This document shows positions 5,355 to 41,186 of a DNA stretch of 43,126 bases, one piece after another. A model generated the notes under the pieces. It had not been told where the DNA came from. It saw only the letters and a program-made list of their open reading frames with translations, and searched no databases. Numbering within the stretch: position 1 is the first letter of the stretch; the number at the start of each line of letters is the position of its first letter. Source of the stretch: Candidatus Woesearchaeota archaeon (GTDB lineage: Archaea; Nanobdellota; Nanobdellia; Woesearchaeales; GW2011-AR9); the NCBI GenBank assembly GCA_018303445.1, contig JAGVYE010000005.1, forward strand, positions 1-43,126. Direction: 5' to 3'. Both the position numbers and the translations under genes were made by a program.

Positions 5355-6473
5355 ATGGAAATCATTACTGAACACTTTTCCAAAATTAATGTCACTCTTC
5401 CAGAAAAAGACGTTCATCGCAAGATGGAAGTATTCTATAATCCTCTCATGAAATCGCAACGAAATATCACCCTGCTTCTCCTAAATTCAATTGAAAAGAA
5501 ACACCTGAACATCGCCGATCCTCTCGCCGGTTCCGGCGTAAGATCGTTACGCTTCCTCAGAGAATTAAAAAAAGAAAAAGTTCAAAACCTCTTTGTCAAT
5601 GATATTAAAGACAATTTCTCTGCCGTTTTTGAAAATAACCTTAAGTCAAACTCTCTAAAAAAAACAGAAGCTCTTCATATTTCTCAGGAAGAGGCTAATC
5701 TTTTTCTCTTAAATCAAATTAACCCTAATAAAGACATTCCAAACTTCTGTGGCTATTTTGACTACATTGACATCGATCCTTTTGGCAGTCCTAATCCTTT
5801 TATCAATGCTGCCATCGCCAGAATCAATCGCGGTGGTATCATGGCCATAACAGCCACTGACACTGCTGCTTTGACAGGAACATATCCAAAAGTGACGCAA
5901 CGGAAATACTGGGCTACTCCTTTAAAAAATTATATGATGCACGAAATCGGCCTGCGCATCTTAATTCGCAAAATTCAACTTATGGGTGTCCAATTTGATA
6001 AAGCCCTCATTCCCATTCTTTCATATCATAAAGACCATTATTTCAGAATTTTTTTCCAATCTATAAAAGGAAAAAAGAAGAGCGATGAAATTATCTCACA
6101 ACATCAGTTCTTATTATGGAACCCGATAACCTTAGAATGTAAAACGTCATCACAGAATTCTGAATCCGGTTTCAAAGTGGCTGGCCCGTTATGGATAGGA
6201 AAGTTATTTGACCATAAATTACTTGCAATCATGGTAAAACAGAATCCCTTTCCAGAAGAAAAATTTTTTCTTACTCTTCTCCATGAAGAGGCAAAACACG
6301 ACACCGTAGGTTTCTATGATTTGCATGAAATCTCCAGACTTTGTAAGTGTGATTCCCCTAAAATAGACTTCGTAGCAAAGAAACTTCAAGGCTCTCGAAC
6401 GCATTTCTCTCTCACAGGGATTAAAACAACAAAAAAGATCATGGATATAAAAAAAATCTTTATTTGTTTCTGA
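5355..6473 (+). CDS. trm1: tRNA (guanine26-N2)-dimethyltransferase Trm1
   Basis: DPLAGSGVRSLRFLRE, DIDPFGSPNPFINAA, TATDTAALTG motifs; start may be 5346 or 5355. Confidence 0.9.
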   Translation: MEIITEHFSKINVTLPEKDVHRKMEVFYNPLMKSQRNITLLLLNSIEKKHLNIADPLAGSGVRSLRFLRELKKEKVQNLFVNDIKDNFSAVFENNLKSNSLKKTEALHISQEEANLFLLNQINPNKDIPNFCGYFDYIDIDPFGSPNPFINAAIARINRGGIMAITATDTAALTGTYPKVTQRKYWATPLKNYMMHEIGLRILIRKIQLMGVQFDKALIPILSYHKDHYFRIFFQSIKGKKKSDEIISQHQFLLWNPITLECKTSSQNSESGFKVAGPLWIGKLFDHKLLAIMVKQNPFPEEKFFLTLLHEEAKHDTVGFYDLHEISRLCKCDSPKIDFVAKKLQGSRTHFSLTGIKTTKKIMDIKKIFICF

Positions 6474-6503
6474 TACCTCGCTGCTTGGGGGCGGTTGGGA
6501 TTT

Positions 6504-6977
6504 TTATTTCTTAACTCTTTCATAATTTGCTACTAATTCCGCTCTGGCGAGAATATGTCTTTCCATCGCTCTTTCCACTTCCAACTTTGTCACTCCTTCT
6601 TTCAGATTCAGCATCAGGTCTAAAGCATAGAGTTTAAAGTAATAGCGGTGCTCAGCATCTGGCGGACAAGGCCCTTTATACTTCAAATTTCCACTTGTTC
6701 CTTTTCCCTGAACTCCTCGCGGTTCTTGTCCTTCTTTAATTTCTCTCGTTTCGGGGGGAATATTAAATACAATCCAATGATCCCATATTTTTCCCGCAGG
6801 TTTTATGGCGTCGGGGTCATCCATAATCAAAACTAAACTTTTCGCACTTTTGGGAACGTCTAAAATAACCAAAGGCGGATTTAAATTTACTCCATCGCAC
6901 GTATATTTAGGATCCATTTTTTCATTATTTTCAAAAGCCAAACTTGTTAGCTTCATAGAGATCGCCTCCGCGGTCAT
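6504..6977 (-). CDS. YbhB/YbcL (PEBP, Raf-kinase-inhibitor-like) family protein
   Basis: FENNEKMDPKYTCDGVNLNPPL, DDPDAIKPAGKIWDHWIVFNIPP; upstream lipoprotein-signal frame discussed in findings. Confidence 0.88.
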   Translation of the reverse strand: MTAEAISMKLTSLAFENNEKMDPKYTCDGVNLNPPLVILDVPKSAKSLVLIMDDPDAIKPAGKIWDHWIVFNIPPETREIKEGQEPRGVQGKGTSGNLKYKGPCPPDAEHRYYFKLYALDLMLNLKEGVTKLEVERAMERHILARAELVANYERVKK

Positions 6978-7084
6978 CTTTTCTTCTGTAACAGGTGTAG
7001 TACAACTTACTGCAAGAACAACAAGCCACAGAATCGCCTCTTCTTTTTTTCATCTGATCTCTTAAATTTTCTTTTCTTTAAAAA

Positions 7085-7178
7085 TATAGCGAGCGTACAT
7101 AATAATCGTAATAAAAAGACGCGAGTTATATATGAAAGAACGAGTATAAATTTACGATGATTTCGTTCTTTCAGTATA
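7085..7178. repeat. 94-bp dispersed element, copy 1
   Basis: 92/94 identical by eye to 14681-14774; internal inverted repeats GAAAGAACGA/TCGTTCTTTC and ATCGTAA/TTACGAT. Confidence 0.92.
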
Positions 7179-7222
7179 TTAAGCCAACACTTTTATAAAA
7201 GCTGCTTTTATTTTTGGTATGA

Positions 7223-8077
7223 ATGAAAGAACTCTTTCGCGGCTACCAACAAGTAGAGGAAGGGAGACTTTATGTCCGTCCCGCTGAATTAGAAGGAGTA
7301 AGCATAAGAGAAGTTCTTATTTCTCAGACTTTCATCAAGCCAACGGAAGACGCGGTCATAGCTTATTTATCTGACAAAGCGACAGAAATTCTCCCCCAGC
7401 GGTCATTAGCTCCATCCGCATCCTCAAAGGAGGTGCTTGTTCTTAATTTGGATGGTTTAATTCGACAATTGTCTCTTCCTACGCTTAAGGGTCTTCAAAA
7501 GAAAGAAAAAGAATATACTGATTTTGTAAGGGAGAACACTCCAGCAAGTTCCCTTCCGGAAGGGGAACAGCCTTCTCGCTATGTCCATGTTGGTTACGGT
7601 ATTATCACTGAGGAAGTAATCGCGTTGAATAAACCAAAACGAGCCATTGATTTAGATTTTTATGAGAAAGCTTTCGAGCAACTCTCAGGGAATCTGGGCT
7701 GGAGGGTACTAATGCAGTGGAAGATAGAGCCACAGATTGAGAGTACCTCTGTAACGTCACATTTATTTCGTATCTTGAAGCGTGCCCCAACTCCCCAGTT
7801 CAAATTACCTCCTCGCAAAAAAACTCATCTTCTCGTACATAATAAAACACCAGAGGAAATTTCCGCTCTCCTAAACGTAGTATACAATGGAATCTCTTTT
7901 GCTTTATCTCACAACATCCCCTTGCGTGACACGACTCATTATCGCCTCGAACAAGCGACGATCCAAGCCGTCAGGTCTTTACTTCAGAAGGACTCTCAAG
8001 AACAAGACCTTGCTCACTTCGCAGAAGCTTTTAATTCTGGCAGAACATCTGGTAATGGAGATAATACCCCCAATTAA
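7223..8077 (+). CDS. hypothetical protein (284 aa)
   Basis: Long ORF; no family recognised. Confidence 0.65.
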   Translation: MKELFRGYQQVEEGRLYVRPAELEGVSIREVLISQTFIKPTEDAVIAYLSDKATEILPQRSLAPSASSKEVLVLNLDGLIRQLSLPTLKGLQKKEKEYTDFVRENTPASSLPEGEQPSRYVHVGYGIITEEVIALNKPKRAIDLDFYEKAFEQLSGNLGWRVLMQWKIEPQIESTSVTSHLFRILKRAPTPQFKLPPRKKTHLLVHNKTPEEISALLNVVYNGISFALSHNIPLRDTTHYRLEQATIQAVRSLLQKDSQEQDLAHFAEAFNSGRTSGNGDNTPN

Positions 8078-8081
8078 CTTT

Positions 8082-8360
8082 TCATCCCAATGCTAAATCC
8101 ATTTTTGCAACTTCTGCCGACTGCACTTCCTTGATTTCCTGCATTCTCGCCGCAATCTTGTCAAAATCCTGATCCCCAACATTATACATCGCCAGAACAA
8201 GAACTGCTTTCAACCCAAAAGCAATCGGTTCTTCTTTCACTTGCGTTTCTCCTAACGCTCCTTCTTCTTTAACAATCTCCTGCGCTTTTCTCTTAATATA
8301 CTCCAAATTACTATGCGGAGATTCTGGCATAATTTTAAAAGTAATAACTGCTCTAGCCAT
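8082..8360 (-). CDS. ef1b: translation elongation factor aEF-1 beta
   Basis: 92 aa, FGLKAVLVLAMYNVGDQDFDKIAARMQEIKEVQSAEV, archaeal EF-1beta pattern. Confidence 0.9.
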   Translation of the reverse strand: MARAVITFKIMPESPHSNLEYIKRKAQEIVKEEGALGETQVKEEPIAFGLKAVLVLAMYNVGDQDFDKIAARMQEIKEVQSAEVAKMDLALG

Positions 8361-8371
8361 TGTTGTTGCCC

Positions 8372-8542
8372 TCAGTTTGGCCCTGTAAAATTACATTGTG
8401 GACAGGCATATTTGATGGCATTTACCCGAGCATAAGAACTGCGGACGATTTCATGCTTTCCGCATTGCGGGCAAGAAAAAACCGCTGCTCCTTTATCATT
8501 CTCAATCCTTTTCTTCGTCGAGATACACATTTTTGGTTCCAT
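8372..8542 (-). CDS. archaeal Zn-ribbon RNA-binding protein (COG2888-like)
   Basis: 56 aa read on the minus strand: MEPKMCISTKKRIENDKGAAVFSCPQCGKHEIVRSSYARVNAIKYACPQCNFTGPN; directly upstream of aEF-1beta. Confidence 0.85.
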   Translation of the reverse strand: MEPKMCISTKKRIENDKGAAVFSCPQCGKHEIVRSSYARVNAIKYACPQCNFTGPN

Positions 8543-8634
8543 GTATGAAGCAGAACGGCACTTTATTTATAAAAGTTCTGAGTTTTTCGAATCAAAACTT
8601 TTAAATCTAAAGATAAAAGAAAGCTCTTTTTATT

Positions 8635-9471
8635 ATGAAAACCATTTATTTTCAAAACAATCCAGAACTGCAGCAGAAAATTAAACGTATCCAGAAAGGT
8701 GGCGTACGTTCTCTTCACTTTGTTTCTGATTTCGATAAAACCCTAACCCCGGCCTTTGTTCAGGGAAAAAGCCTTCCGTCTTCCTATGCTTTAATTCGCG
8801 AAGGAAAATATTTAACACCAGAATACGTTTCTCGTGCTTATGCGGAATATGATAAATATCATCCTTACGAGGTTGATCATTATCTCTCCCTCAAAGAAAA
8901 AAGCGCGAAAATGGTTGAATGGTGGGAACATCATTGGCAACTGATGGTTGAATGTGGGATAAATAAAAAGGTCTTTGAAGATATCATCCAGAAAGGCAAA
9001 ATTCAATTGCGTGAAGGAAGTGTCGAACTCTTCTCTTTATTACATGAACATACTATCCCTTTCCTTATTTTTTCCTCTGGGTTAGGAAATCTCATTGAAC
9101 TTTTTCTCAAAAAAAACAAATTTCTCACTCCAAATGTTCATCTTCTCGCGAATTTCTTCACTTTTGACGAGAACGGAATTGCCACGGGATTTAAACGCCC
9201 CCTTATCCACGTTTTTAACAAGAATGAATATGAACTACGTGATACTCCTTATTATCGAGAAGTCAAACAACGTCGCAATGTTATTTTGTTAGGTGATAGC
9301 CTAGGAGATTTAGGGATGATAGAAGGATTACAACATGACACCATTATTCGTATAGGTTTCCTTAATGAAGATAAAGCGTTGCTGGATCATTATTTACAAG
9401 TATTTGATGTTGTCATCACCGAAGATGGTCCAGTAGAAGAAGTAAATAGAATTATAAAAGCGGTCCTTTAG
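8635..9471 (+). CDS. HAD-superfamily pyrimidine 5'-nucleotidase (UMPH-1/cytosolic 5'-nucleotidase III-like)
   Basis: VSDFDKTLTPAF, IFSSGLGNLIE, LLGDSLGDLGMIEG motifs. Confidence 0.75.
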   Translation: MKTIYFQNNPELQQKIKRIQKGGVRSLHFVSDFDKTLTPAFVQGKSLPSSYALIREGKYLTPEYVSRAYAEYDKYHPYEVDHYLSLKEKSAKMVEWWEHHWQLMVECGINKKVFEDIIQKGKIQLREGSVELFSLLHEHTIPFLIFSSGLGNLIELFLKKNKFLTPNVHLLANFFTFDENGIATGFKRPLIHVFNKNEYELRDTPYYREVKQRRNVILLGDSLGDLGMIEGLQHDTIIRIGFLNEDKALLDHYLQVFDVVITEDGPVEEVNRIIKAVL

Positions 9472-10579
9472 GCGGATTCTTTATTTTTTCTCTCACACTA
9501 ATATTACTTCCTTCTACCATAAACCCCACTGGTAAAAATTTCTCTACAACATAAATGTTTGTAAGCGTATGGTTGCTTACTTTGCTTCCCTTTATTGAAG
9601 ATCCTGGTAATAAACTCATATAGAGAACAAGTTGATCTAGGAGATGATAATCAACTGCCGCTCTCGATTTTATTTCTTGCTCCAATTCTTCTGCCGCTTC
9701 TTTGCCAATCTCTTCCGAACTTTTTCCTTTCTCAATCAGGGCGTCTCCCCCTAAGAGGATTGGGTTATCGTAATCAACTTTTCCTTCATTACTGCCTATT
9801 CCCCATAATAAAATTTCTCCGCCGACACTAAACGCTTTTGTGTATTCTACTCGTATATTCACCGGCACGTGATGATGTCGGAGCATATTTTCCGCCGCCA
9901 TTTTGATTCTTTCTCCTACTTCTCTCTCCTGCAATTCTATTGAAACATTGACAATTCCTTTGATTTGTTCTAAAGTTCCCTGCTTCACGAGCACGATTTT
10001 TGCCGTCTTAAAAAGTAATTCTTCTAAAAGTGCAGTATAAGAGCCATATTCATCTAACCTAAACCGGGGTGTAATTTCTACGACAACTTCCCCTCCTCCT
10101 TGGGGATAATAACCTCTTTTTATAATTCTCATTTCAATTTTCTCTACAAACCTTTGTAAATAAGGATAGAGAATGTTTTGCACATAATCAACAGAGGCTT
10201 GCCACTTTCCGCACGTTCCACCTTTAATTTTAAACGTTACTTTTCCAGGTGCAAAAAGTGCTGGCAGCGTAATCGCTTGCAGAAGTAAGGAAATACTTCC
10301 GGCGGTTCCAATATTAAACTCAAAAATTCCTCTCTTAATCTTTCCTGGATTAAAATATAACTCCTGTGTTCCAATCTCTACTTCATTCGTCTTTGCGCCA
10401 CAAAATTCTTTTAACGCTTTTATGGCCGTCAGATGCTGCGCTTTTAATCCCGGTTCAGATCTTCCCGCTCTGATATTTTTTACGACAAATCCCCGTCCTG
10501 TTAATGTTGACAAAGCTAACGCTGTTCTTACTAAGGCTCCTCCTCCTTCTCCATAATTCCCATCGAGAGAAATCATCAC
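9452..10579 (-). CDS. rtcA: RNA 3'-terminal phosphate cyclase
   Basis: DGNYGEGGGALVRTALALS, PGLKAQHLTAIKAL, GTAGSISLLLQ, YYPQGGGEV. Confidence 0.95.
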   Translation of the reverse strand: MMISLDGNYGEGGGALVRTALALSTLTGRGFVVKNIRAGRSEPGLKAQHLTAIKALKEFCGAKTNEVEIGTQELYFNPGKIKRGIFEFNIGTAGSISLLLQAITLPALFAPGKVTFKIKGGTCGKWQASVDYVQNILYPYLQRFVEKIEMRIIKRGYYPQGGGEVVVEITPRFRLDEYGSYTALLEELLFKTAKIVLVKQGTLEQIKGIVNVSIELQEREVGERIKMAAENMLRHHHVPVNIRVEYTKAFSVGGEILLWGIGSNEGKVDYDNPILLGGDALIEKGKSSEEIGKEAAEELEQEIKSRAAVDYHLLDQLVLYMSLLPGSSIKGSKVSNHTLTNIYVVEKFLPVGFMVEGSNISVREKIKNPPKGPLL

Positions 10580-21238: not shown

Positions 21239-21326
21239 AGCCCCTGCCGCGATTTGAACGCGGGACCTGCGCTTAACTCTTTAAACTAATACGAGAGCGC
21301 CGCTCTAGCCACTGAGCCACAGGGGC
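21239..21326 (-). tRNA. tRNA-Thr (anticodon CGT) with about 15-nt intron (21275-21289)
   Basis: Minus strand: acceptor GCCCCTG/CAGGGGC, T-arm CCGCG-TTCAAAT-CGCGG, anticodon stem GCGCT/AGCGC, CT-CGT-A then intron TTAGTTTAAAGAGTT. Confidence 0.92.
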
Positions 21327-32768: not shown

Positions 32769-34235
32769 TCATATTTCTCTTCTTTTTCTAAACACTAGAG
32801 TTATTCTTTCATACAAATTCTTCACTAATTCAATGTCGTCAGATGTAATTTCCCTTAAAAGGTAGAGTAATAAGACGTAGAGTAGCATTAATAGGGTATA
32901 AAAAAAGAGGAGATAAAACCCTGAAGGATGAATCCACAACGCCAAAACAAAAATTATTCCTGAGCTTACGAGAATATTAATGGCAGATTTAACCTTGACA
33001 AAGCAATGGAATTTGTGTATAATGTAACTAAAAGTTATCACAAAGGCAATAAGAGAAGCACAGAGAGAAGCCATCGCTGCCCCTTTCATTCCTAAAGAAG
33101 GAATAAATTGTATCCCCGTTATCATCAGAACAGCTGCTCCTATCAACGTGAACCAGAACGATAATCCAGGCTCGCCACTACCCGAAATAATAGATGTGCA
33201 GGTTAAAAAGATAACGAGAAACATTGTACTCAAGATGAGAAAAGAAAGAGCTTCTCCTCCCGCTGCATATTCAAAGGAATACAAGAAAATAATGGCTTCT
33301 TTTGCCGTTGCCGTAATGAGTGCCGTTATTGGCAGGAGTCCTAAAAGCAAATAACGCATTGATAGCGTGATATATCTCTTTGTCAACTCAAGATTCTTTT
33401 CGCTCGTTGATTTTGAAATCGAAGGAAGCAACGTTAAAGCTAATGTGGAAAAAATAATATAAGGTATATTTGAAATCGTCATCGCCGCCGTATAGTATCC
33501 CACAAGACTATTATCCCTCAGCAATGATTTAACAAGAAGAGTATCGAGATTACGCATGAAGATTAAACTTAAGGAAGAGGCAACAATCGGCAGCGCGAAC
33601 AATATTAACTTCTTTTTAGGGAAGTTCTCTTTTGCCATGAATGAAGGAACACCAAAAAGAAGTACAGAAATAAAGATGGAAACAGCCAGAGATGTGAAGT
33701 ACCCCCAAAGGACACCAAAGACTTCTAGCCCTATAAAAACGAAAAGAAATATGAATAATAAGCGAAATAGGGACGAAATCATTGTTGCTATGGCTTCCCT
33801 TCTGAACCATCGAAGTCCGTTGAGATATCCATCAACATAAAAATAAAATAAAGAAAGCGGTATAACGATAATCCCAATATAGAAAATATAAATGCGCAGT
33901 GAGTCATCATTAAGCAAGGCTGCGATTTGTTTTGAGAAAATCATATAAAAAAGAACCATGAACGCCGTCATAATCATGTGCAGTTTGAACGCTGCTTTGA
34001 TAATTGATCCTTCATCTCTATTTGGCTCTGGCAAATACTTCGACATGGCTTTAGGAATACCAGCATGAAGAACGGCCCTATTAATCTGATACAAAGAGGT
34101 AATAACTCCTACAACTCCAAACAATGCCGCTCCTAAATATCGCGCCAATCCAACGTTAATAATATAACTCGTTGCTACATTCACGATGCTCGAAATCATT
34201 ACAAAGGCTGTGCCAATACCCATTTCACGTTTCAT
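32769..34235 (-). CDS. polysaccharide flippase (Wzx/MATE-like)
   Basis: About 12-14 TM, ARYLGAALFGVVGVITSLYQINRAVLHAGIPKAMSKYLPE. Confidence 0.88.
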   Translation of the reverse strand: MKREMGIGTAFVMISSIVNVATSYIINVGLARYLGAALFGVVGVITSLYQINRAVLHAGIPKAMSKYLPEPNRDEGSIIKAAFKLHMIMTAFMVLFYMIFSKQIAALLNDDSLRIYIFYIGIIVIPLSLFYFYVDGYLNGLRWFRREAIATMISSLFRLLFIFLFVFIGLEVFGVLWGYFTSLAVSIFISVLLFGVPSFMAKENFPKKKLILFALPIVASSLSLIFMRNLDTLLVKSLLRDNSLVGYYTAAMTISNIPYIIFSTLALTLLPSISKSTSEKNLELTKRYITLSMRYLLLGLLPITALITATAKEAIIFLYSFEYAAGGEALSFLILSTMFLVIFLTCTSIISGSGEPGLSFWFTLIGAAVLMITGIQFIPSLGMKGAAMASLCASLIAFVITFSYIIHKFHCFVKVKSAINILVSSGIIFVLALWIHPSGFYLLFFYTLLMLLYVLLLYLLREITSDDIELVKNLYERITLVFRKRREI

Positions 34236-34358: not shown

Positions 34359-37337
34359 ATGAAAAGAGTAGTGTGGGCGAATAAATCGAACGGGCAGTTA
34401 TGTGTTACGATCCCTAAAGAAGTTGATGTTAAAGAAGGAGATTTTGTTGAAATTAAGAAAGCTCCATTACAGCGAATTTCCTATTTAGGTATTGTAGGCG
34501 ATCTCTTTCACTATGGCCACTTAAGTTCTATTAAGTTTGCCAATTCTCTTGCAGATTACATGGTGTGTGGTGTTCTTACAGATAAAGCAGTAGAATCATA
34601 CCGCGTCAGACCGATTGCCAATATAACGGAACGAAAAGCCGTCATTGAGAATCTTAATTGTGTAGATCGAGTAATGACTCAGGATTTAGTAGACCCTACA
34701 GAGAATCTTAAACGGCTGCATGAGGAATTTCCTCACGCTGAAATTATTCTGGTTCATGGAGATAACTGGCAGGACGTGCCGGGCATAGAGTATATAAAAA
34801 GCATTGGCGGAAAAATTGTCCAGCATCCTTATTATGGCCGATTATCAACATTTAAGATCGTAAATCAAATTCTTCAAGATAAAGATAAATATAAGGATAT
34901 TACTAAATTTACTTCCTTCATTCGCAATGGCAGTTCTTCCTCAGCTCAATGGGATAGTAATAAAGCCGTTATTAGTTCCAAAGCAGATACGTTAGCGGCC
35001 TTAAAACCGCTTCTCCAGAAATCAAAAATTGAAGATCTCTATACTTTTACCATTTCTGACTGGAAAAATGATAAGAAAAAAATTTTGAGAACTATTCAAG
35101 AGCTATTTACAGGAAAAATTGTTATTCGCAGTTCTGCCGTGAGTGAAGACACCTTGGAACAGTCACTGGCGGGAAATTTTCAAAGCGTTTTGCATATCGA
35201 TTCTCAAGAGATAAAAGCTGTAGAAGAGGCTATTGCCACAGTCTTGCGTTCCTATCGAGAAAAACAAGCAGAAAGTTCTTTCAATCAAATTCTCGTGCAA
35301 AAACAAACTGATAATATAACTATGAGTGGTGTTCTTTTCACCAGGACCTTAGAGAAAAATGCTCCTTACTATGTGGTCAATTATGATGATAAAACAGGAA
35401 GCTCTGATTCGGTAACGGCAGGAAGAGAGAACCAAGTGATGATTATTGCTCACGATGCCGAGAATATTCCTGAGAAAATGAAACCACTTCTCGAAGCTGT
35501 ACAGGAATTAGAACAGAAAATTCCCTCTCTTCCTTTAGATATCGAGTTTGCTATATCTTGTGAAGGTGTTGTTATTTTCCAAGTTCGTCCTTTGGCGGTA
35601 AATAGGCATAAAGAACGTCATGATGAGGAAGTAAAAGAGAGAGTAACTTCTCTCCAAGAAAAATTTTTGAAATTGACACAAAAACCGGCACATCTCTGTG
35701 GCGAAACAACTATCTTTGCGGATATGCCTGATTGGAATCCTGCGGAAATTATCGGCGATAGACCTAATCTTCTCGATTACTCTCTCTACGATTATGTTAT
35801 TACGAACAGTGCCTGGCACGAAGCCAGAGCCTCGCAAGGGTATCATGATGTAAAACCAGCAAAATTAGTGGAATTATTTGCCAATAAACCGTATGTTAAC
35901 GTGAGAAATTCTTTCAATTCTTTTATTCCGGCGGCGATTAAAAATCCATTGAGAGATAAACTCGTTGCTTTCTACCTTGACAAACTTCGTCATAATCAAC
36001 ATTTACAAGATAAAGTTGAATTTGAAATTGCTTACACTTGTTATGATTTAAGCTTTGATGAACGAAGCTTGGAATTAGAAAAAGCAGGATTTACAAAAGA
36101 AGAACTTCGATCCTTAAAACAATCTCTTCTTCAATTAACAAACACCCTTGTGAGCAACTACCAAAAAAATATTGATTTAGATATTAAGGATGTTCTTAGC
36201 CTAGGAGAGTTACGAACATTCCTAAACCAGAAAGTAAAGAACGAAAAATTTACACCTAAAGAGCTCATTAATAATGCCAAGTCTCTCCTTGATGAATGTC
36301 GTCGGAAAGGAACAGTGCAATTTTCCCGTTTAGCACGGCTAGGTTTTATAGGAAAAATTATCTTAAAAAGTATGGTAAAGAAAGGAATTATCTTTCAAGA
36401 TACTTATGATCGCTTTTATAAATCCCTCAACACCGTTGCTAGTGAAATCAGCAATGATTTCAAAAAACTTTTGCGGCATGAAATTTCTGAAGAAACGTTT
36501 ATCAAAAAATATTATCATCTCCGTCCAGGAACGTATGACATCACCAGCTTACGGTATGATAAAAATCCAACCCTTTTCCAAGTTTTTCCCCAAGCTTTTG
36601 ATGAAGAAACGGGGTACGGATCTTTCATTTTTGATACTGAGAAAGAAAAAATAAAAAATGCTTTTCAAGAACATGGCCTCCAATTTTCACCCGATGAATT
36701 TTTCGAATTTACACAAAAAGCGACGGAAGCGCGGGAACTTTCTAAATTTGAGTTCACCAAGAATCTTAGCGATGCTTTAGAGCTTCTTGCCGAAGCGGGA
36801 GAACTCATGGGCTTTACTCGTAAAGAAATGGCCCTGCTTGACATCAACGAAATTTTCCGCAGCAACGCTCTCAGCGATGTAGAAGAAATGACTCAGGAAT
36901 GGAAAAGCATCATCAAAATCCGTGAGGAAGAAAAAACAATTCATGATAAAATTGTTCTTCCTTCTCTCCTTTTCTCTGAAGATCACTTTGATCTTATTCA
37001 ACATTATGAAGCTAAGCCAAACTTTATTACCCAAAAAATTATTACTAGAAAAGTTGTCAACATAAATTCTTTTGATAAAGAAAAAATCCCTCCCATTGAA
37101 GGAAGTATCGTTATTCTCGAAAATGGCGATCCTGGTTATGACTGGATTTTTACGCGTAATCCCGCTGGACTGATCACAAAATATGGCGGCGTTGCTTCGC
37201 ATATGTCTATTCGCTGCGCCGAATTTGGCATTCCCGCGGCGATAGGTTGTGGAGAAATGATCTTTGAAAGAGTTAAAAATGCTACGGAAGTGCGATTAGA
37301 TTGTAAAGCAAACAAAATCGAACCGTTGCGGAGATAA
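34359..37337 (+). CDS. AbrB-like + cytidylyltransferase (HYGH) + PPDK/PEP-synthase-like kinase fusion; candidate L-glutamine kinase (Cj1418-like)
   Basis: GQLCVTIPKEVDVKEGDFVEIKK; GDLFHYGHLSSIKFA; IVIRSSAVSEDTLEQSLAGNFQSVLH; DPGYDWIFTRNPAGLITKYGGVASHMSIRCAEFGIPAAIGCGE. Confidence 0.85.
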   Translation: MKRVVWANKSNGQLCVTIPKEVDVKEGDFVEIKKAPLQRISYLGIVGDLFHYGHLSSIKFANSLADYMVCGVLTDKAVESYRVRPIANITERKAVIENLNCVDRVMTQDLVDPTENLKRLHEEFPHAEIILVHGDNWQDVPGIEYIKSIGGKIVQHPYYGRLSTFKIVNQILQDKDKYKDITKFTSFIRNGSSSSAQWDSNKAVISSKADTLAALKPLLQKSKIEDLYTFTISDWKNDKKKILRTIQELFTGKIVIRSSAVSEDTLEQSLAGNFQSVLHIDSQEIKAVEEAIATVLRSYREKQAESSFNQILVQKQTDNITMSGVLFTRTLEKNAPYYVVNYDDKTGSSDSVTAGRENQVMIIAHDAENIPEKMKPLLEAVQELEQKIPSLPLDIEFAISCEGVVIFQVRPLAVNRHKERHDEEVKERVTSLQEKFLKLTQKPAHLCGETTIFADMPDWNPAEIIGDRPNLLDYSLYDYVITNSAWHEARASQGYHDVKPAKLVELFANKPYVNVRNSFNSFIPAAIKNPLRDKLVAFYLDKLRHNQHLQDKVEFEIAYTCYDLSFDERSLELEKAGFTKEELRSLKQSLLQLTNTLVSNYQKNIDLDIKDVLSLGELRTFLNQKVKNEKFTPKELINNAKSLLDECRRKGTVQFSRLARLGFIGKIILKSMVKKGIIFQDTYDRFYKSLNTVASEISNDFKKLLRHEISEETFIKKYYHLRPGTYDITSLRYDKNPTLFQVFPQAFDEETGYGSFIFDTEKEKIKNAFQEHGLQFSPDEFFEFTQKATEARELSKFEFTKNLSDALELLAEAGELMGFTRKEMALLDINEIFRSNALSDVEEMTQEWKSIIKIREEEKTIHDKIVLPSLLFSEDHFDLIQHYEAKPNFITQKIITRKVVNINSFDKEKIPPIEGSIVILENGDPGYDWIFTRNPAGLITKYGGVASHMSIRCAEFGIPAAIGCGEMIFERVKNATEVRLDCKANKIEPLRR

Positions 37338-37340
37338 AAC

Positions 37341-38018
37341 ATGGTAATCTTATTATCACAAAAGATAAGTGTAACCAAACATGGCGATCAAACTGATGCT
37401 CTTGAACATAGCTTAAGTCATTATTTAGAAAGAATGAAAATTCATTTTATCCCTGTTTCCAATTCTCTGCATGACCTCCAGTATTATTTCTCTACCTTTC
37501 TTATCGAAGGAATTATTTTGTCTGGAGGAAATGACATTGATCCTTTATCGTACGGTAAAGAAAGAAAAAATGATCCGGACATTGTTCCGGAACGTGACCG
37601 AGTTGAGAAGATACTTTTAGAGGCAGCAGTAAAAAGAAAAATACCTCTTTTAGGAATCTGTCGGGGTATGCAATTTATTAATGTCTATTTTAATGGAAAA
37701 CTTACTCATTTGCTTTCTCAAAGGATAATACACCTGCCTCGCCAGGATCATCCTGTCATCATCCAAGAGTTTGTCGCGGAACTTGGGAAAGAACACGTTG
37801 TTAATTCTTATCATAATTATGGGATTTTGAAAAATGATCTTTCTCCAGAGCTAAAACCATTTGCCATTACTTCAGATGGGATAATAGAAGGAATTTTTCA
37901 TCCGATTTTGCCTATCATGGGAATACAATGGCATCCTGAGAGAGTAAATCAAGATCAAACCTTTAACGACTTCATCGTAAAAGCGTTTAAAGAGCGGAAG
38001 TTTTTTTGGAAGAAATAA
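37341..38018 (+). CDS. class-I glutamine amidotransferase-like hydrolase (peptidase C26; Cj1417-like gamma-glutamyl-CDP-amidate hydrolase candidate)
   Basis: LSGGNDIDPLSYG, LLGICRGMQFIN, MGIQWHPER. Confidence 0.85.
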   Translation: MVILLSQKISVTKHGDQTDALEHSLSHYLERMKIHFIPVSNSLHDLQYYFSTFLIEGIILSGGNDIDPLSYGKERKNDPDIVPERDRVEKILLEAAVKRKIPLLGICRGMQFINVYFNGKLTHLLSQRIIHLPRQDHPVIIQEFVAELGKEHVVNSYHNYGILKNDLSPELKPFAITSDGIIEGIFHPILPIMGIQWHPERVNQDQTFNDFIVKAFKERKFFWKK

Positions 38019-38019
38019 A

Positions 38020-38466
38020 TTACACGGAACGTAACTTTCTGGCCATATCTTCGAGCTTCTCTTGAGTATAAGGGGGATTTATTCTTTCTCTATCTTTCTG
38101 AACAACTAATCTTCCAGAAGAATCATGCACCGTTGTCCAGAGAACACGAAAGTGCGAATCTGAAGGAATCATATGGTAATGAATGTGTGGTTGTGAAGAA
38201 TGTCGTCCTGTTTGCATAGCATGAATTGGTGGATGCTCTGGATAGGCTCGAAGCAATCGTTGTTGACTATTATATAATATCTCATTAATTGCTCCTGACT
38301 CTTCGGCTGTTAATTCGTCTAATCTTAATACATGTCGTCGTGGTGTGATAAGCAAATGTCCATCACGCAATGGATACGTTGAAACTACAACAACAGCATA
38401 ATCATTCTTTGTTACAATTCTATACTCTTCCTCATACGCTAAACATAAACCACAAAGAGATTCCAT
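38020..38466 (-). CDS. HIT family hydrolase
   Basis: DGHLLITPRRHV, QPHIHYHMIPS (HxHxH motif). Confidence 0.88.
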   Translation of the reverse strand: MESLCGLCLAYEEEYRIVTKNDYAVVVVSTYPLRDGHLLITPRRHVLRLDELTAEESGAINEILYNSQQRLLRAYPEHPPIHAMQTGRHSSQPHIHYHMIPSDSHFRVLWTTVHDSSGRLVVQKDRERINPPYTQEKLEDMARKLRSV

Positions 38467-38472
38467 AAAGAT

Positions 38473-39366
38473 CTATTGCACCATATATCGACGCAGCGCA
38501 TCCATATCTACGTTCAATACCATTTCTAACTTTGTAAGGTCTTTTAATGTTCTTCTAAGCTGAGCATCACTTATCTTTCCAGAGGCATTAGTGAGAACAC
38601 GTAATTCAAATCCGCCGCCGAGTTCATAACCTCCTCCTGCTCTTTCCCACAACTCCCGCGCATTTGTACCTAAATCACCAGTGAGACCAGCGGTAATAAT
38701 TTCTAAATTAGGCTGATGAGTCGTGGAAAGAATGACACTGCGAGTTAAAACTTCCCGCATTACGCGAAAGCCCCTCTCCATCACCTTCAATGGCGGCTCA
38801 GAACGTTGATCAAGCTCAAATCCTTTCTGTACCATCCATTGGTAACCAGGAAAGCTAGGATTGATTATTTTATGGTATGCTTCAGCAACAAGTTCATTTC
38901 CTTCATCCGGTTTTCCTCGTGAGTTTTTGTACTTTGTTTCATTCAAGGCTTCAAAAAGAACCACTTCTGCTATCTTATGCAACCCCTGGAAGGCTAATAC
39001 TCTCTGCGTTTCAGGCGAAAGAACACTAATATCATGAACATTTTGTGCGTAGGCCTTCGCCATACCTACAAACAGGTACGTCGCTGTTTCCCTTGCCCTG
39101 GCGAGAGGAGAAGGGGCGATAAGAACAGGAACAATACCACCAGAAAGAACAGAAAAAAAATCTTGCGGAACAGATAATGTTTCTCCAATCTTGACGGCTT
39201 TTTCGTATTCCGTAGCAGCAAGATGCGCTTCCCCATCGGGATGTATCCCATTTCCTACAAAAGCGGTATCTACCGTTCCTGGAACCGCGACTTCTTCTCC
39301 GACAAAGAAAGGTTCTCTCGCTAATAAATGCCGCCGTAAATGCCAAACATGTTCAGTTGTTGCCAT
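38473..39366 (-). CDS. histidine-phosphatase-superfamily-like protein
   Basis: HLRRHLLAREP, APSPLARARETATYL, STTHQPNLE. Confidence 0.65.
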   Translation of the reverse strand: MATTEHVWHLRRHLLAREPFFVGEEVAVPGTVDTAFVGNGIHPDGEAHLAATEYEKAVKIGETLSVPQDFFSVLSGGIVPVLIAPSPLARARETATYLFVGMAKAYAQNVHDISVLSPETQRVLAFQGLHKIAEVVLFEALNETKYKNSRGKPDEGNELVAEAYHKIINPSFPGYQWMVQKGFELDQRSEPPLKVMERGFRVMREVLTRSVILSTTHQPNLEIITAGLTGDLGTNARELWERAGGGYELGGGFELRVLTNASGKISDAQLRRTLKDLTKLEMVLNVDMDALRRYMVQ

Positions 39367-39379
39367 GTTTTTTCTCTCT

Positions 39380-40285
39380 CTATTTTTTGCTTGCTTTGTA
39401 ATCTGCTTCTAATCTCGCAGTGAGAACTTTATTGCTTACTCCATTTTCTCTATAGAGACGAGCTTGTTCTTGGAGGATATCTTCAACGCGAGGATTACAA
39501 ATTATGTCCCTTCCAAAAGCAGCATCAATTAGCATTACTGATTGATCATGGCAATGAACACATACTCCGGTCAATGGCTCGAGAGCTCCTCCGAGTTCAT
39601 TAAATAGTGATGGTAAGTCTTCCCAGGTTGTTCCCGTACGCCCATCATCTTTGCCACGAATCATTTGCATTGTCAATGCTGCCCAAGGCTCGATATCTCC
39701 AGAATGACCAAAAGCCAGATATTGTGTATCTTTTTCTCCCTTTTCTAGTGTTTCATATAAAAACGCTCCCACTCTCCAGGCAATTTCTCGTAATGTAATT
39801 CCAGGATCACTATTATTCCAAGTCTCGGGCTTTCCTAGCAGCCATCCGTGAGGGTTATCAAATCCTTGTTCAAACCAAGCATAAAGAGGCTTATTTTCTC
39901 CGTGTAAATGATCATAACGTTCATCCTTTTTTGCATCTCCCCATATTTTGGACATGGCCCGCGTTCCTAAATTCACTGCTTTTCCCGTTTCTGGATGGAG
40001 AGCAGCAGAACCAATAAGTGCATTAACTTGTGGTTCGACAACTTCTATTTCACGAGAACTTCGCATAACCTCATATTGAACCTTACCCGTGGCTATAGCT
40101 CTATCAATCGGTGTTGTCCAGATTTCAATTCGCCTATAACCCCCATCTCTTGCTGTGATCAATCGACGCGCAGCATCCACTTTTATCTCTGGAATCTTAG
40201 CAGGATCTAGAAGTGCTTCCACTCCAGTTCCATGAGCTTTAGGATCATTATTTTTCCACGCATGCCGTAATAAGTATATCTGCAT
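39380..40285 (-). CDS. histidine-phosphatase-superfamily-like protein
   Basis: MQIYLLRHAWKNND, IWTTPIDRAIATGKV, FGHSGDIEPWA. Confidence 0.72.
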   Translation of the reverse strand: MQIYLLRHAWKNNDPKAHGTGVEALLDPAKIPEIKVDAARRLITARDGGYRRIEIWTTPIDRAIATGKVQYEVMRSSREIEVVEPQVNALIGSAALHPETGKAVNLGTRAMSKIWGDAKKDERYDHLHGENKPLYAWFEQGFDNPHGWLLGKPETWNNSDPGITLREIAWRVGAFLYETLEKGEKDTQYLAFGHSGDIEPWAALTMQMIRGKDDGRTGTTWEDLPSLFNELGGALEPLTGVCVHCHDQSVMLIDAAFGRDIICNPRVEDILQEQARLYRENGVSNKVLTARLEADYKASKK

Positions 40286-40397: not shown

Positions 40398-41186
40398 ATG
40401 AAAGCTATCATCCTCGCCGCCGGTATGGGCACTCGTTTAGGAGATTACACTAAAAATCTTCCTAAAGGAATGCTTTCGTTTAACAATAAATCTTTAATCG
40501 CACAACAAGTCGAAAATCTACGCAAAGCGGGTATCACTGACATTTCCATCGTCCGTGGTTATATGGCTGACAAAATTAACATCCCTGGAGTTAAATATTA
40601 CCTCAATCCAATTTACGATCAGACTAATATGGTGGAAACACTGTTCTATGCTGAACAAGAATTGGACGGAAAAGATGATGTTCTGGTGTGTTATGCTGAT
40701 ATTGTTTATGAACCAAAAGTTCTCCAGAAAATTCTCAACAGCAAAGCTGAGGTAGGTGTTACTGTTGACGAAGATTACTGGGATTATTGGCAGGCACGAG
40801 CCGATAAACCAGAAGAAGACATGGAAAGTTTAGTCCTCGAAAATGGAAAAATCGTTGAATTAGGTAATACTAAATGTACACGAGAGGAAGCTAAAGTACG
40901 GTATGTTGGGTTAATTAAATTTTCAAAGAAAGGGCTGCAGAAATTAAAAGAAGTTTATCATGAAAACAAAATCAAATTTTATGACAGAAATGAACCTTGG
41001 CTGCGATCTAAATCATTCAAGAAAGTGTATATGACTTGCATGCTGCAAGCGCTTATTAACGCTGGACAAAAAGTAGAGCCGATTATTATCAATCGCGGCT
41101 GGCTTGAATTTGACACCGTAGAAGATTATGAGAAATATACACAATGGTTGAAGGAAGGGAGTATTAAGAGATTTATAACCTTGTGA
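40398..41186 (+). CDS. sugar-nucleotidyltransferase-like cytidylyltransferase (LicC/Cj1416-like)
   Basis: MKAIILAAGMGTRLGDYTKNLPKGML, NMVETLFYAEQEL, GWLEFDTVEDYEKY. Confidence 0.88.
   Translation: MKAIILAAGMGTRLGDYTKNLPKGMLSFNNKSLIAQQVENLRKAGITDISIVRGYMADKINIPGVKYYLNPIYDQTNMVETLFYAEQELDGKDDVLVCYADIVYEPKVLQKILNSKAEVGVTVDEDYWDYWQARADKPEEDMESLVLENGKIVELGNTKCTREEAKVRYVGLIKFSKKGLQKLKEVYHENKIKFYDRNEPWLRSKSFKKVYMTCMLQALINAGQKVEPIIINRGWLEFDTVEDYEKYTQWLKEGSIKRFITL

What the first reader, a model, noticed from the sequence alone, without database searches (positions are those of the whole stretch)
34359..37337. Four-part fusion: AbrB-like domain + HxGH cytidylyltransferase + glutamine-kinase-like ATP-grasp/PEP-mobile domains
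The N-terminal about 40 aa (GQLCVTIPKEVDVKEGDFVEIKK) look like a SpoVT/AbrB swapped hairpin. They are followed by a TagD/PCYT2-like cytidylyltransferase (GDLFHYGH...LSTFKI) and then a full PPDK-like kinase with SHMSIRC. A putative DNA-binding domain on a metabolic enzyme is unusual, and a second CTP transferase in the locus raises the question of which one activates the phospho-intermediate.
Basis: partly seen in the sequence, partly recalled or inferred. Interest (0 to 1): 0.72.

Follow-up and report, generated by a model that had tools for sequence, protein, structure and literature searches.

The report
Archaeal glutamine kinase with fused cytidylyltransferase
This archaeal gene joins an enzyme that makes a rare phosphorus-nitrogen bond on glutamine to a CTP-using enzyme module borrowed from phosphonate pathways, and it sits in an archaeal version of the pathway by which Campylobacter decorates its surface, which makes a puzzle in that pathway (why two CTP-using enzymes are present) testable.

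Summary
The ORF is real, intact and at the stated coordinates (34359-37337, + strand, 992 aa). It holds a 38-aa hairpin, a PF01467 HxGH cytidylyltransferase (CT) and a full-length glutamine kinase of the Campylobacter Cj1418 type (NF004508, 854 bits, cut-off 501). The fusion recurs in 14 DPANN genomes, so it is not an assembly artefact. The next gene is a C26 hydrolase; a MobA-like CTP transferase lies nearby. Together they form the archaeal counterpart of the CDP-phosphoramidate pathway.

The AbrB call is partly right. No Pfam family recognises the hairpin, but profile-profile comparison with AbrB scores 26.4, against at most 17.1 in 400 shuffles. It looks like a shortened swapped hairpin. 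It is found almost only in front of this CT, so a DNA-binding role is unlikely.

The main new result: the same hairpin-CT exists as a stand-alone gene in 14 loci of related archaea, in clusters for making or importing phosphonates (or beside a transporter). In every assessable locus a second cytidylyltransferase is beside it. In phosphoramidate loci that one (MobA-like, 40398-41186) is most likely the phosphoglutamine cytidylyltransferase. The fused CT then probably serves another, shared CTP-dependent step. Its substrate is unproven.

The parts
34359..34472 (+). N-terminal 38-aa hairpin, AbrB / cradle-loop-like, shortened (aa 1-38)
   Evidence: No Pfam hit at E<=10. hhalign against AbrB profile: prob 82.7, score 26.4; 400 column shuffles give at most 17.1. 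Found in 9 of 14 fused homologues.
34470..34913 (+). HxGH cytidylyltransferase domain, PF01467 (aa 38-185), HYGH motif intact
   Evidence: PF01467 3.6e-10. Profile hits Fom1 CT 5x3d 1.2e-17, ethanolamine-phosphate CT 3elb 1.1e-20, TagD 1coz 3.2e-12. HYGH in 14/14 fused homologues.
34953..37328 (+). L-glutamine kinase of Cj1418 type: ATP-grasp (PPDK_N), middle domain, PEP-mobile domain with His948 (aa 199-990)
   Evidence: NF004508 853.8 bits, cut-off 501. R257-S258-S259, E396, Q408, R410, H948 invariant in 18 archaeal and bacterial homologues.
37341..38018 (+). Peptidase C26 hydrolase, probable gamma-glutamyl-CDP-amidate hydrolase (Cj1417 type), 3 bp after the fusion gene
   Evidence: PF07722 1.5e-34. 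Best NCBIfam model is NF045546 at 101 bits, below its cut-off of 250. Cys and His-Glu motifs kept.
40398..41186 (+). MobA-like NTP transferase, probable CTP:phosphoglutamine cytidylyltransferase (Cj1416 type)
   Evidence: PF12804 4.8e-15. 63-71% identical to copies in 10 other archaeal loci of this kind (48-53% in two divergent ones). Shares the TNMV.SL motif and W..R insert with bacterial glutamine-kinase cassettes, unlike phosphonate-cluster MobAs.
38020..38466 (-). HIT-family protein, possible nucleoside-phosphoramidate or nucleotide hydrolase; part of locus uncertain
   Evidence: PF01230 1.2e-10. A relative lies beside the fusion gene in L007; another HIT gene lies beside a stand-alone hairpin-CT in L208.
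38473..39366 (-). Histidine-phosphatase-like protein 1; part of locus uncertain
   Evidence: Relatives near the fusion gene in L005, L007, L008. Weak His_Phos_1 match, 0.0087 for the L007 copy.
39380..40285 (-). Histidine-phosphatase-like protein 2 (assigned by eye from RHA and GHSG motifs); part of locus uncertain
   Evidence: Relative between C26 and MobA genes in L052 (40%). No significant Pfam family.
32769..34235 (-). Polysaccharide flippase (MatE/Polysacc_synt), surface-glycan context
   Evidence: PF01943 7.4e-24. A 39% relative is next to the locus in L059.

Best explanation
The protein is a bifunctional enzyme of an archaeal (DPANN) CDP-phosphoramidate pathway for decorating surface glycans or lipids. 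[quoted passage not shown] The separate MobA-like enzyme (40398-41186) transfers CMP from CTP to N-phospho-glutamine. The C26 hydrolase (37341-38018) then cuts off glutamate and leaves CDP-phosphoramidate. A transferase, in many relatives a CDP-alcohol phosphatidyltransferase next door, passes the phosphoramidate on. The fused N-terminal CT is a module taken from archaeal phosphonate-activation clusters. It keeps its HxGH site and is most likely an active second CTP transferase for a step that these phosphorus-carbon and phosphorus-nitrogen clusters have in common, rather than the phosphoglutamine step itself. The hairpin in front of it is a shortened AbrB-like fold that probably serves assembly, not DNA binding. 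Shown here: domain content, recurrence, gene neighbourhood, motif conservation. Inferred: every catalytic activity, and the substrate of the fused CT.
For: Full-length glutamine kinase match with catalytic residues invariant across 18 homologues. Kinase, C26 and MobA genes stay together in every archaeal fusion locus that can be assessed and in bacterial plasmid loci of Vibrio, Azospirillum, Pseudohalocynthiibacter, Agrobacterium and a deltaproteobacterium. None of the 14 bacterial plasmid kinase genes carries an HxGH CT, so MobA suffices there. The MobA family splits by pathway: archaeal P-N against P-C copies 28% identical, 56-61% within each class, with P-N-specific motifs shared with bacteria. 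The CT splits much less: fused against stand-alone phosphonate copies 46%, 57-65% within each class. Stand-alone hairpin-CT genes lie in phosphonate synthesis (L086, L087, L089, L090, L092, L094, L206-L209), phosphonate import (L091, L095, L208) or MFS-transporter (L088, L093) clusters, always with another cytidylyltransferase. CDP-alcohol phosphatidyltransferases lie near 9 of 14 fused loci; the window's own genome has only four, none in the window. Published: Ppm enzymes fused to PF01467 in 23.6% and PF12804 in 33%, both in 2.9% (PMC6697681).
Against: No activity is shown. Most fused CTs (12 of 14) have Arg where Fom1, ECT and CCT have the catalytic Lys, and all lack the RTxGIST arginine motif, so activity could be low or changed. 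Fusing the kinase to the CT would be most simply explained if the CT used the kinase's own product. The window itself has no CDP-alcohol phosphatidyltransferase. The C26 hydrolase scores below the NCBIfam equivalog cut-off. The between-class identity argument is indirect.
Confidence: 0.55

Rival explanations
1. The fused CT is the phosphoglutamine cytidylyltransferase. It captures labile N-phospho-glutamine directly from the kinase active site on the same chain and makes CDP-glutamine; the MobA protein then does something else, such as making a CDP-alcohol.
For: Consecutive steps are often fused. The closest full-length solved relative is the Fom1 CT domain, which acts on a phosphonate, a close mimic of a P-N substrate. 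HYGH is conserved in 14/14 fused copies.
Against: MobA is kept in all assessable fused loci and is the only such enzyme in bacterial cassettes. MobA, not the CT, tracks the P-N/P-C difference most strongly. Stand-alone hairpin-CT occurs in phosphonate clusters that have no glutamine kinase.
Confidence: 0.27
2. The fused CT is a CTP-binding scaffold or regulator with little catalysis. It holds the kinase and the partner cytidylyltransferase together or senses CTP.
For: Arg replaces the catalytic Lys in 12/14 fused copies and the RTxGIST motif is lost. Three stand-alone copies have a broken HxGH (NYGQ, NYGQ, NYGH). In Vibrio and Pseudohalocynthiibacter the kinase instead carries an N-terminal MobA-like domain without its nucleotide-binding signature, an independent case of a CT-like appendage that looks inactive.
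Against: All 14 kinase-fused copies keep HYGH, and most keep the S-T-x-K end motif.
Confidence: 0.2
3. The N-terminal segment is a true AbrB DNA-binding domain that makes the enzyme autoregulate its operon.
For: Profile-profile similarity to AbrB well above shuffles. Related free 40-43 aa proteins exist in nearby genomes, some in virus-like regions.
Against: No Pfam match. Helix and last strand missing. Absent from 5 of 14 fused relatives. Almost always tied to the CT, also in stand-alone genes.
Confidence: 0.05
4. The fusion is a misassembly or frameshift product.
For: The genome is a fragmented draft of 54 contigs.
Against: The same junction is seen in 14 genomes from several families.
Confidence: 0.01

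Closest known systems
Campylobacter jejuni O-methyl phosphoramidate pathway (Cj1418 L-glutamine kinase, Cj1416 phosphoglutamine cytidylyltransferase, Cj1417 hydrolase)
   Same: Kinase family (NF004508 over cut-off), C26 hydrolase and MobA-like CTP transferase in one locus; inferred chemistry the same.
   Different: Archaeal host; kinase carries an N-terminal HxGH CT and hairpin; no Cj1415-type kinase identified among the scanned window genes; transferase probably of another type.
Ppm-cytidylyltransferase fusions of phosphonate biosynthesis (Fom1, AepX with PF01467 and/or PF12804; PMC6697681)
   Same: The enzyme that makes the unusual phosphorus bond is fused to a PF01467 CT, often with a second CTP transferase beside it.
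   Different: The bond-forming partner is a glutamine kinase (P-N), not PEP mutase (P-C); the CT is the hairpin-CT type, about 30% identical to the AepX CT.
Vibrio alfacsensis and Pseudohalocynthiibacter glutamine kinases (L039, L040)
   Same: Glutamine kinase with an N-terminal CT-like appendage, C26 and MobA next door.
   Different: The appendage is a MobA-type domain that has lost its nucleotide-binding signature, not an HxGH CT.
Borg extrachromosomal elements of methane-oxidising archaea (PMC12660748)
   Same: Reported to carry a phosphoramidate-type cluster and a phosphoglutamine cytidylyltransferase in an archaeal setting.
   Different: The passages read describe no HxGH CT-glutamine kinase fusion; different archaea.

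Membership tests
L-glutamine kinase (Cj1418 type, NF004508) | Full-length match over the curated cut-off | tested here: met
   853.8 bits, cut-off 501, profile 5-788 of 789.
L-glutamine kinase (Cj1418 type, NF004508) | ATP-grasp residues and PEP-mobile-domain histidine | tested here: met
   R257-S-S, E396, Q408, R410, H948 invariant in 18 homologues.
L-glutamine kinase (Cj1418 type, NF004508) | N-phosphorylation of L-glutamine | not testable with these tools
   Needs an enzyme assay.
HxGH cytidylyltransferase (PF01467) | PF01467 over gathering score and HxGH motif | tested here: met
   40.6 bits, cut-off 21; HYGH in 14/14 fused copies.
Canonical TagD/CCT/ECT cytidylyltransferase | Catalytic Lys and RTxGIST motif | tested here: not met
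   Arg in place of Lys in 12/14; YYxRLST instead of RTEGIST. The Fom1 CT also lacks this Arg.
SpoVT/AbrB swapped hairpin (PF04014) | Pfam match | tested here: not met
   No match at E<=10 for any of 8 homologous N-termini.
SpoVT/AbrB swapped hairpin (PF04014) | Profile-profile similarity above controls | tested here: met
   Score 26.4, prob 82.7; 400 shuffles reach at most 17.1.
SpoVT/AbrB swapped hairpin (PF04014) | Complete beta-beta-alpha-beta unit | tested here: inconclusive
   Alignment drops 4 residues where the helix starts; structure models too poor.
Gamma-glutamyl-CDP-amidate hydrolase (NF045546) | Over curated cut-off | tested here: not met
   101.3 bits, cut-off 250, but best-scoring model for the protein.
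CTP:phosphoglutamine cytidylyltransferase (Cj1416 type) | PF12804 with nucleotide-binding signature and P-N-cassette motifs | tested here: met
   AAGMGTRL...LPK kept; TNMV.SL and W..R insert shared with bacterial kinase-cassette copies. Direct comparison with the Cj1416 sequence not done.

The most novel reading that the evidence does not exclude
Archaeal P-C and P-N surface-tailoring pathways share a so-far unknown second CTP-dependent step, carried out by a hairpin-CT module that can be free-standing or fused to glutamine kinase and always works beside a pathway-specific cytidylyltransferase.
Probability: 0.35. Interest if true: 0.72.

Novelty: new variant of a known kind. Interest (0 to 1): 0.55.

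Why it matters
Glutamine kinase is known mainly from Campylobacter capsule modification. This locus suggests that DPANN archaea make phosphoramidates as well, and that the logic of fusing the enzyme that makes an unusual phosphorus bond to a cytidylyltransferase, described for phosphonates, extends to phosphorus-nitrogen bonds. The consistent pairing of two cytidylyltransferases in both kinds of cluster is unexplained in the published phosphonate work found here, and this fused protein plus the MobA protein form a small set in which the question can be assayed directly.

Tried and rejected
AlphaFold models of residues 1-190 (mean pLDDT 57) and of the full protein (mean pLDDT 51), built on 6-row alignments, were too poor to use, so no fold search was run. 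The viral contig scan with the full protein found no relative. The scan with the alignment found only CT-like relatives and no glutamine kinase. Phage-collection hits are unannotated gut contigs, probably bacterial in part. An apparent similarity of the hairpin to the end of the MobA domain in Segatella AepX was considered and dropped as weak. G121 and G394, which lack the CT, were set aside as a partial kinase gene without partners and a contig-end fragment.

Full report
Observation. The frame 34359-37337 (+) is a single intact ORF of 992 aa. Pfam and NCBIfam place a PF01467 cytidylyltransferase at 48-139 and a full-length NF004508 kinase at 199-990, 853.8 bits against a cut-off of 501. The kinase family is that of the Campylobacter L-glutamine kinase; that link rests on the pathway literature (PMC6429109), on the annotation of neighbouring genes and on my own knowledge of Cj1418, whose sequence was not at hand.

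Pathway context. Three bases after the stop lies a C26 hydrolase whose best NCBIfam model is gamma-glutamyl-CDP-amidate hydrolase, though below cut-off. A MobA-like NTP transferase follows at 40398. The same trio, kinase-C26-MobA, is found in the bacterial plasmid loci of Vibrio, Pseudohalocynthiibacter, Azospirillum, Agrobacterium and a deltaproteobacterium, and in all archaeal fusion loci whose contigs reach far enough. Two neighbours in the set are even fused: C26 with MobA in L006, and kinase with C26 in L044. This agrees with the Campylobacter route: glutamine kinase, phosphoglutamine cytidylyltransferase, hydrolase, CDP-phosphoramidate.

Recurrence of the fusion. The kinase with an N-terminal HxGH CT is present in 14 archaeal genomes: the window's, L004-L008, and L052, L053, L055-L059, L096. 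L055 and L057 are interrupted reading frames and L096 has a divergent kinase part. Among 353 genomes of the order, 12 have a strong kinase match. The two without a CT are a partial gene without partners (G121) and a gene cut by a contig end (G394). None of the 14 bacterial plasmid kinase genes has an HxGH CT. Two, Vibrio and Pseudohalocynthiibacter, carry instead an N-terminal MobA-like domain that has lost the GxGxR signature.

The hairpin. The first 38 residues are strongly conserved (invariant V5 W6 N8 K9 N11 Q13 L14 C15 T17 I18 G27 E31) but not seen by Pfam. A profile search of the PDB gives double-psi-barrel proteins at the top (0.0008, residues 20-36) and one AbrB protein at 0.71. Profile-profile comparison with AbrB domains from the same family of archaea scores 26.4, against at most 17.1 in 400 column shuffles and 8.0 for the reversed profile. 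The alignment lacks the start of the helix, and no fourth strand fits before the CT. So it is a shortened member of the cradle-loop kind, AbrB being the nearest label. It is missing in 5 of 14 fused proteins (L005, L007, L008, L056, L057).

The module elsewhere. Searching for the hairpin in 193 genomes of the order and 371 of the phylum found it, besides the kinase fusions, in 14 stand-alone genes of about 180-190 aa that are hairpin plus the same CT, and in a few free 40-43 aa proteins, some in virus-like regions. The stand-alone genes lie in phosphonate clusters (CT-PEP mutase, phosphonopyruvate decarboxylase, reductase or aminotransferase), beside a PhnD-type phosphonate importer (PF12974 1.9e-79), or beside an MFS transporter that looks like an organophosphate carrier by eye. 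In all of them another cytidylyltransferase is next door: CT-PEP mutase, MobA or a small CT. In the kinase fusions the partner is MobA. So the hairpin-CT was never found as the only cytidylyltransferase, except where a contig end prevents a verdict (L057).

Which enzyme activates phospho-glutamine? MobA diverges strongly by pathway: archaeal P-N against archaeal P-C copies 28% identical, 61% and 56% within each class, and archaeal and bacterial P-N copies share the TNMV.SL motif and a W..R insert that P-C copies lack. The CT diverges less: fused against stand-alone phosphonate copies 46%, 57% and 65% within. With the bacterial cassettes that have only MobA, this favours MobA as the phosphoglutamine enzyme. 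The fused CT keeps HYGH in 14/14 but has Arg in place of the catalytic Lys in 12/14 and YYxRLST in place of RTEGIST. The Fom1 CT, which acts on a phosphonate, also lacks that Arg in the alignment. That the Lys is important in choline-phosphate CT is from my own knowledge. CDP-alcohol phosphatidyltransferases near 9 of 14 fused loci, against four in the whole genome of the window, suggest the final transferase or a user of a CDP-alcohol made by the CT. The window itself has none.

Known and new. Rice et al. (PMC6697681) described Ppm fused to PF01467 or PF12804 or both. The Borg paper (PMC12660748) reported a phosphoramidate-type cluster in archaeal elements. I found no paper in the held library that describes an HxGH CT-glutamine kinase fusion or the DPANN pathway; subscription papers are mostly missing from it. 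I rate this a new variant of a known kind.

Limits. No activity is tested, structure models failed, whole bacterial genomes could not be surveyed, and cluster roles of the HIT and histidine-phosphatase-like genes on the opposite strand are only suggested by their recurrence.

Noticed in passing
L096 6549-10238 (G476): A 1229-aa relative with the same hairpin-CT but a divergent kinase part: the first ATP-grasp motif is altered (VRASV for VRSSA) and a second PPDK-like module follows; C26 and MobA are still next door.
   Followed up: partly
L039 8443-9000 and L040 8278-9000: Glutamine kinases of Vibrio alfacsensis and Pseudohalocynthiibacter carry an N-terminal MobA-like domain without its nucleotide-binding signature, an independent CT-like appendage.
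   Followed up: yes
L006 10996-12498: C26 hydrolase and MobA-like transferase are one 500-aa protein, linking the two steps. The same locus also has CT-PEP mutase and phosphonopyruvate decarboxylase.
   Followed up: partly
L121, L124 (G184) and L122 (G326), near position 1500: Free 40-43 aa proteins resembling the hairpin (VWKNKGANQKLVTIPKNCDIEEGDYIRIEKVK); those of G184 lie among virus-like structural genes.
   Followed up: partly
L063 4838-6534 (window genome, contig C4): A 138-aa FAD-synthetase-like HxGH protein overlaps by 4 bp the end of a 427-aa protein with a PEP-mobile-domain-like end, a second kinase-like/CT pairing in the same genome.
   Followed up: no
L091 and L095 (around 6000-10000), L208 1869-7764: Hairpin-CT next to PhnD/C/E-type phosphonate importers and MobA-like transferases: possible activation of imported phosphonates.
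   Followed up: partly
L005 356-2620: By eye, a fusion of a pyruvate-kinase-like part with an ATP-sulfurylase-like part near the locus; related separate genes in L092 4024-6860.
   Followed up: no
window 21239-21326 (-): ARAGORN reports a tRNA with an unclear four-base anticodon (cgta).
   Followed up: no
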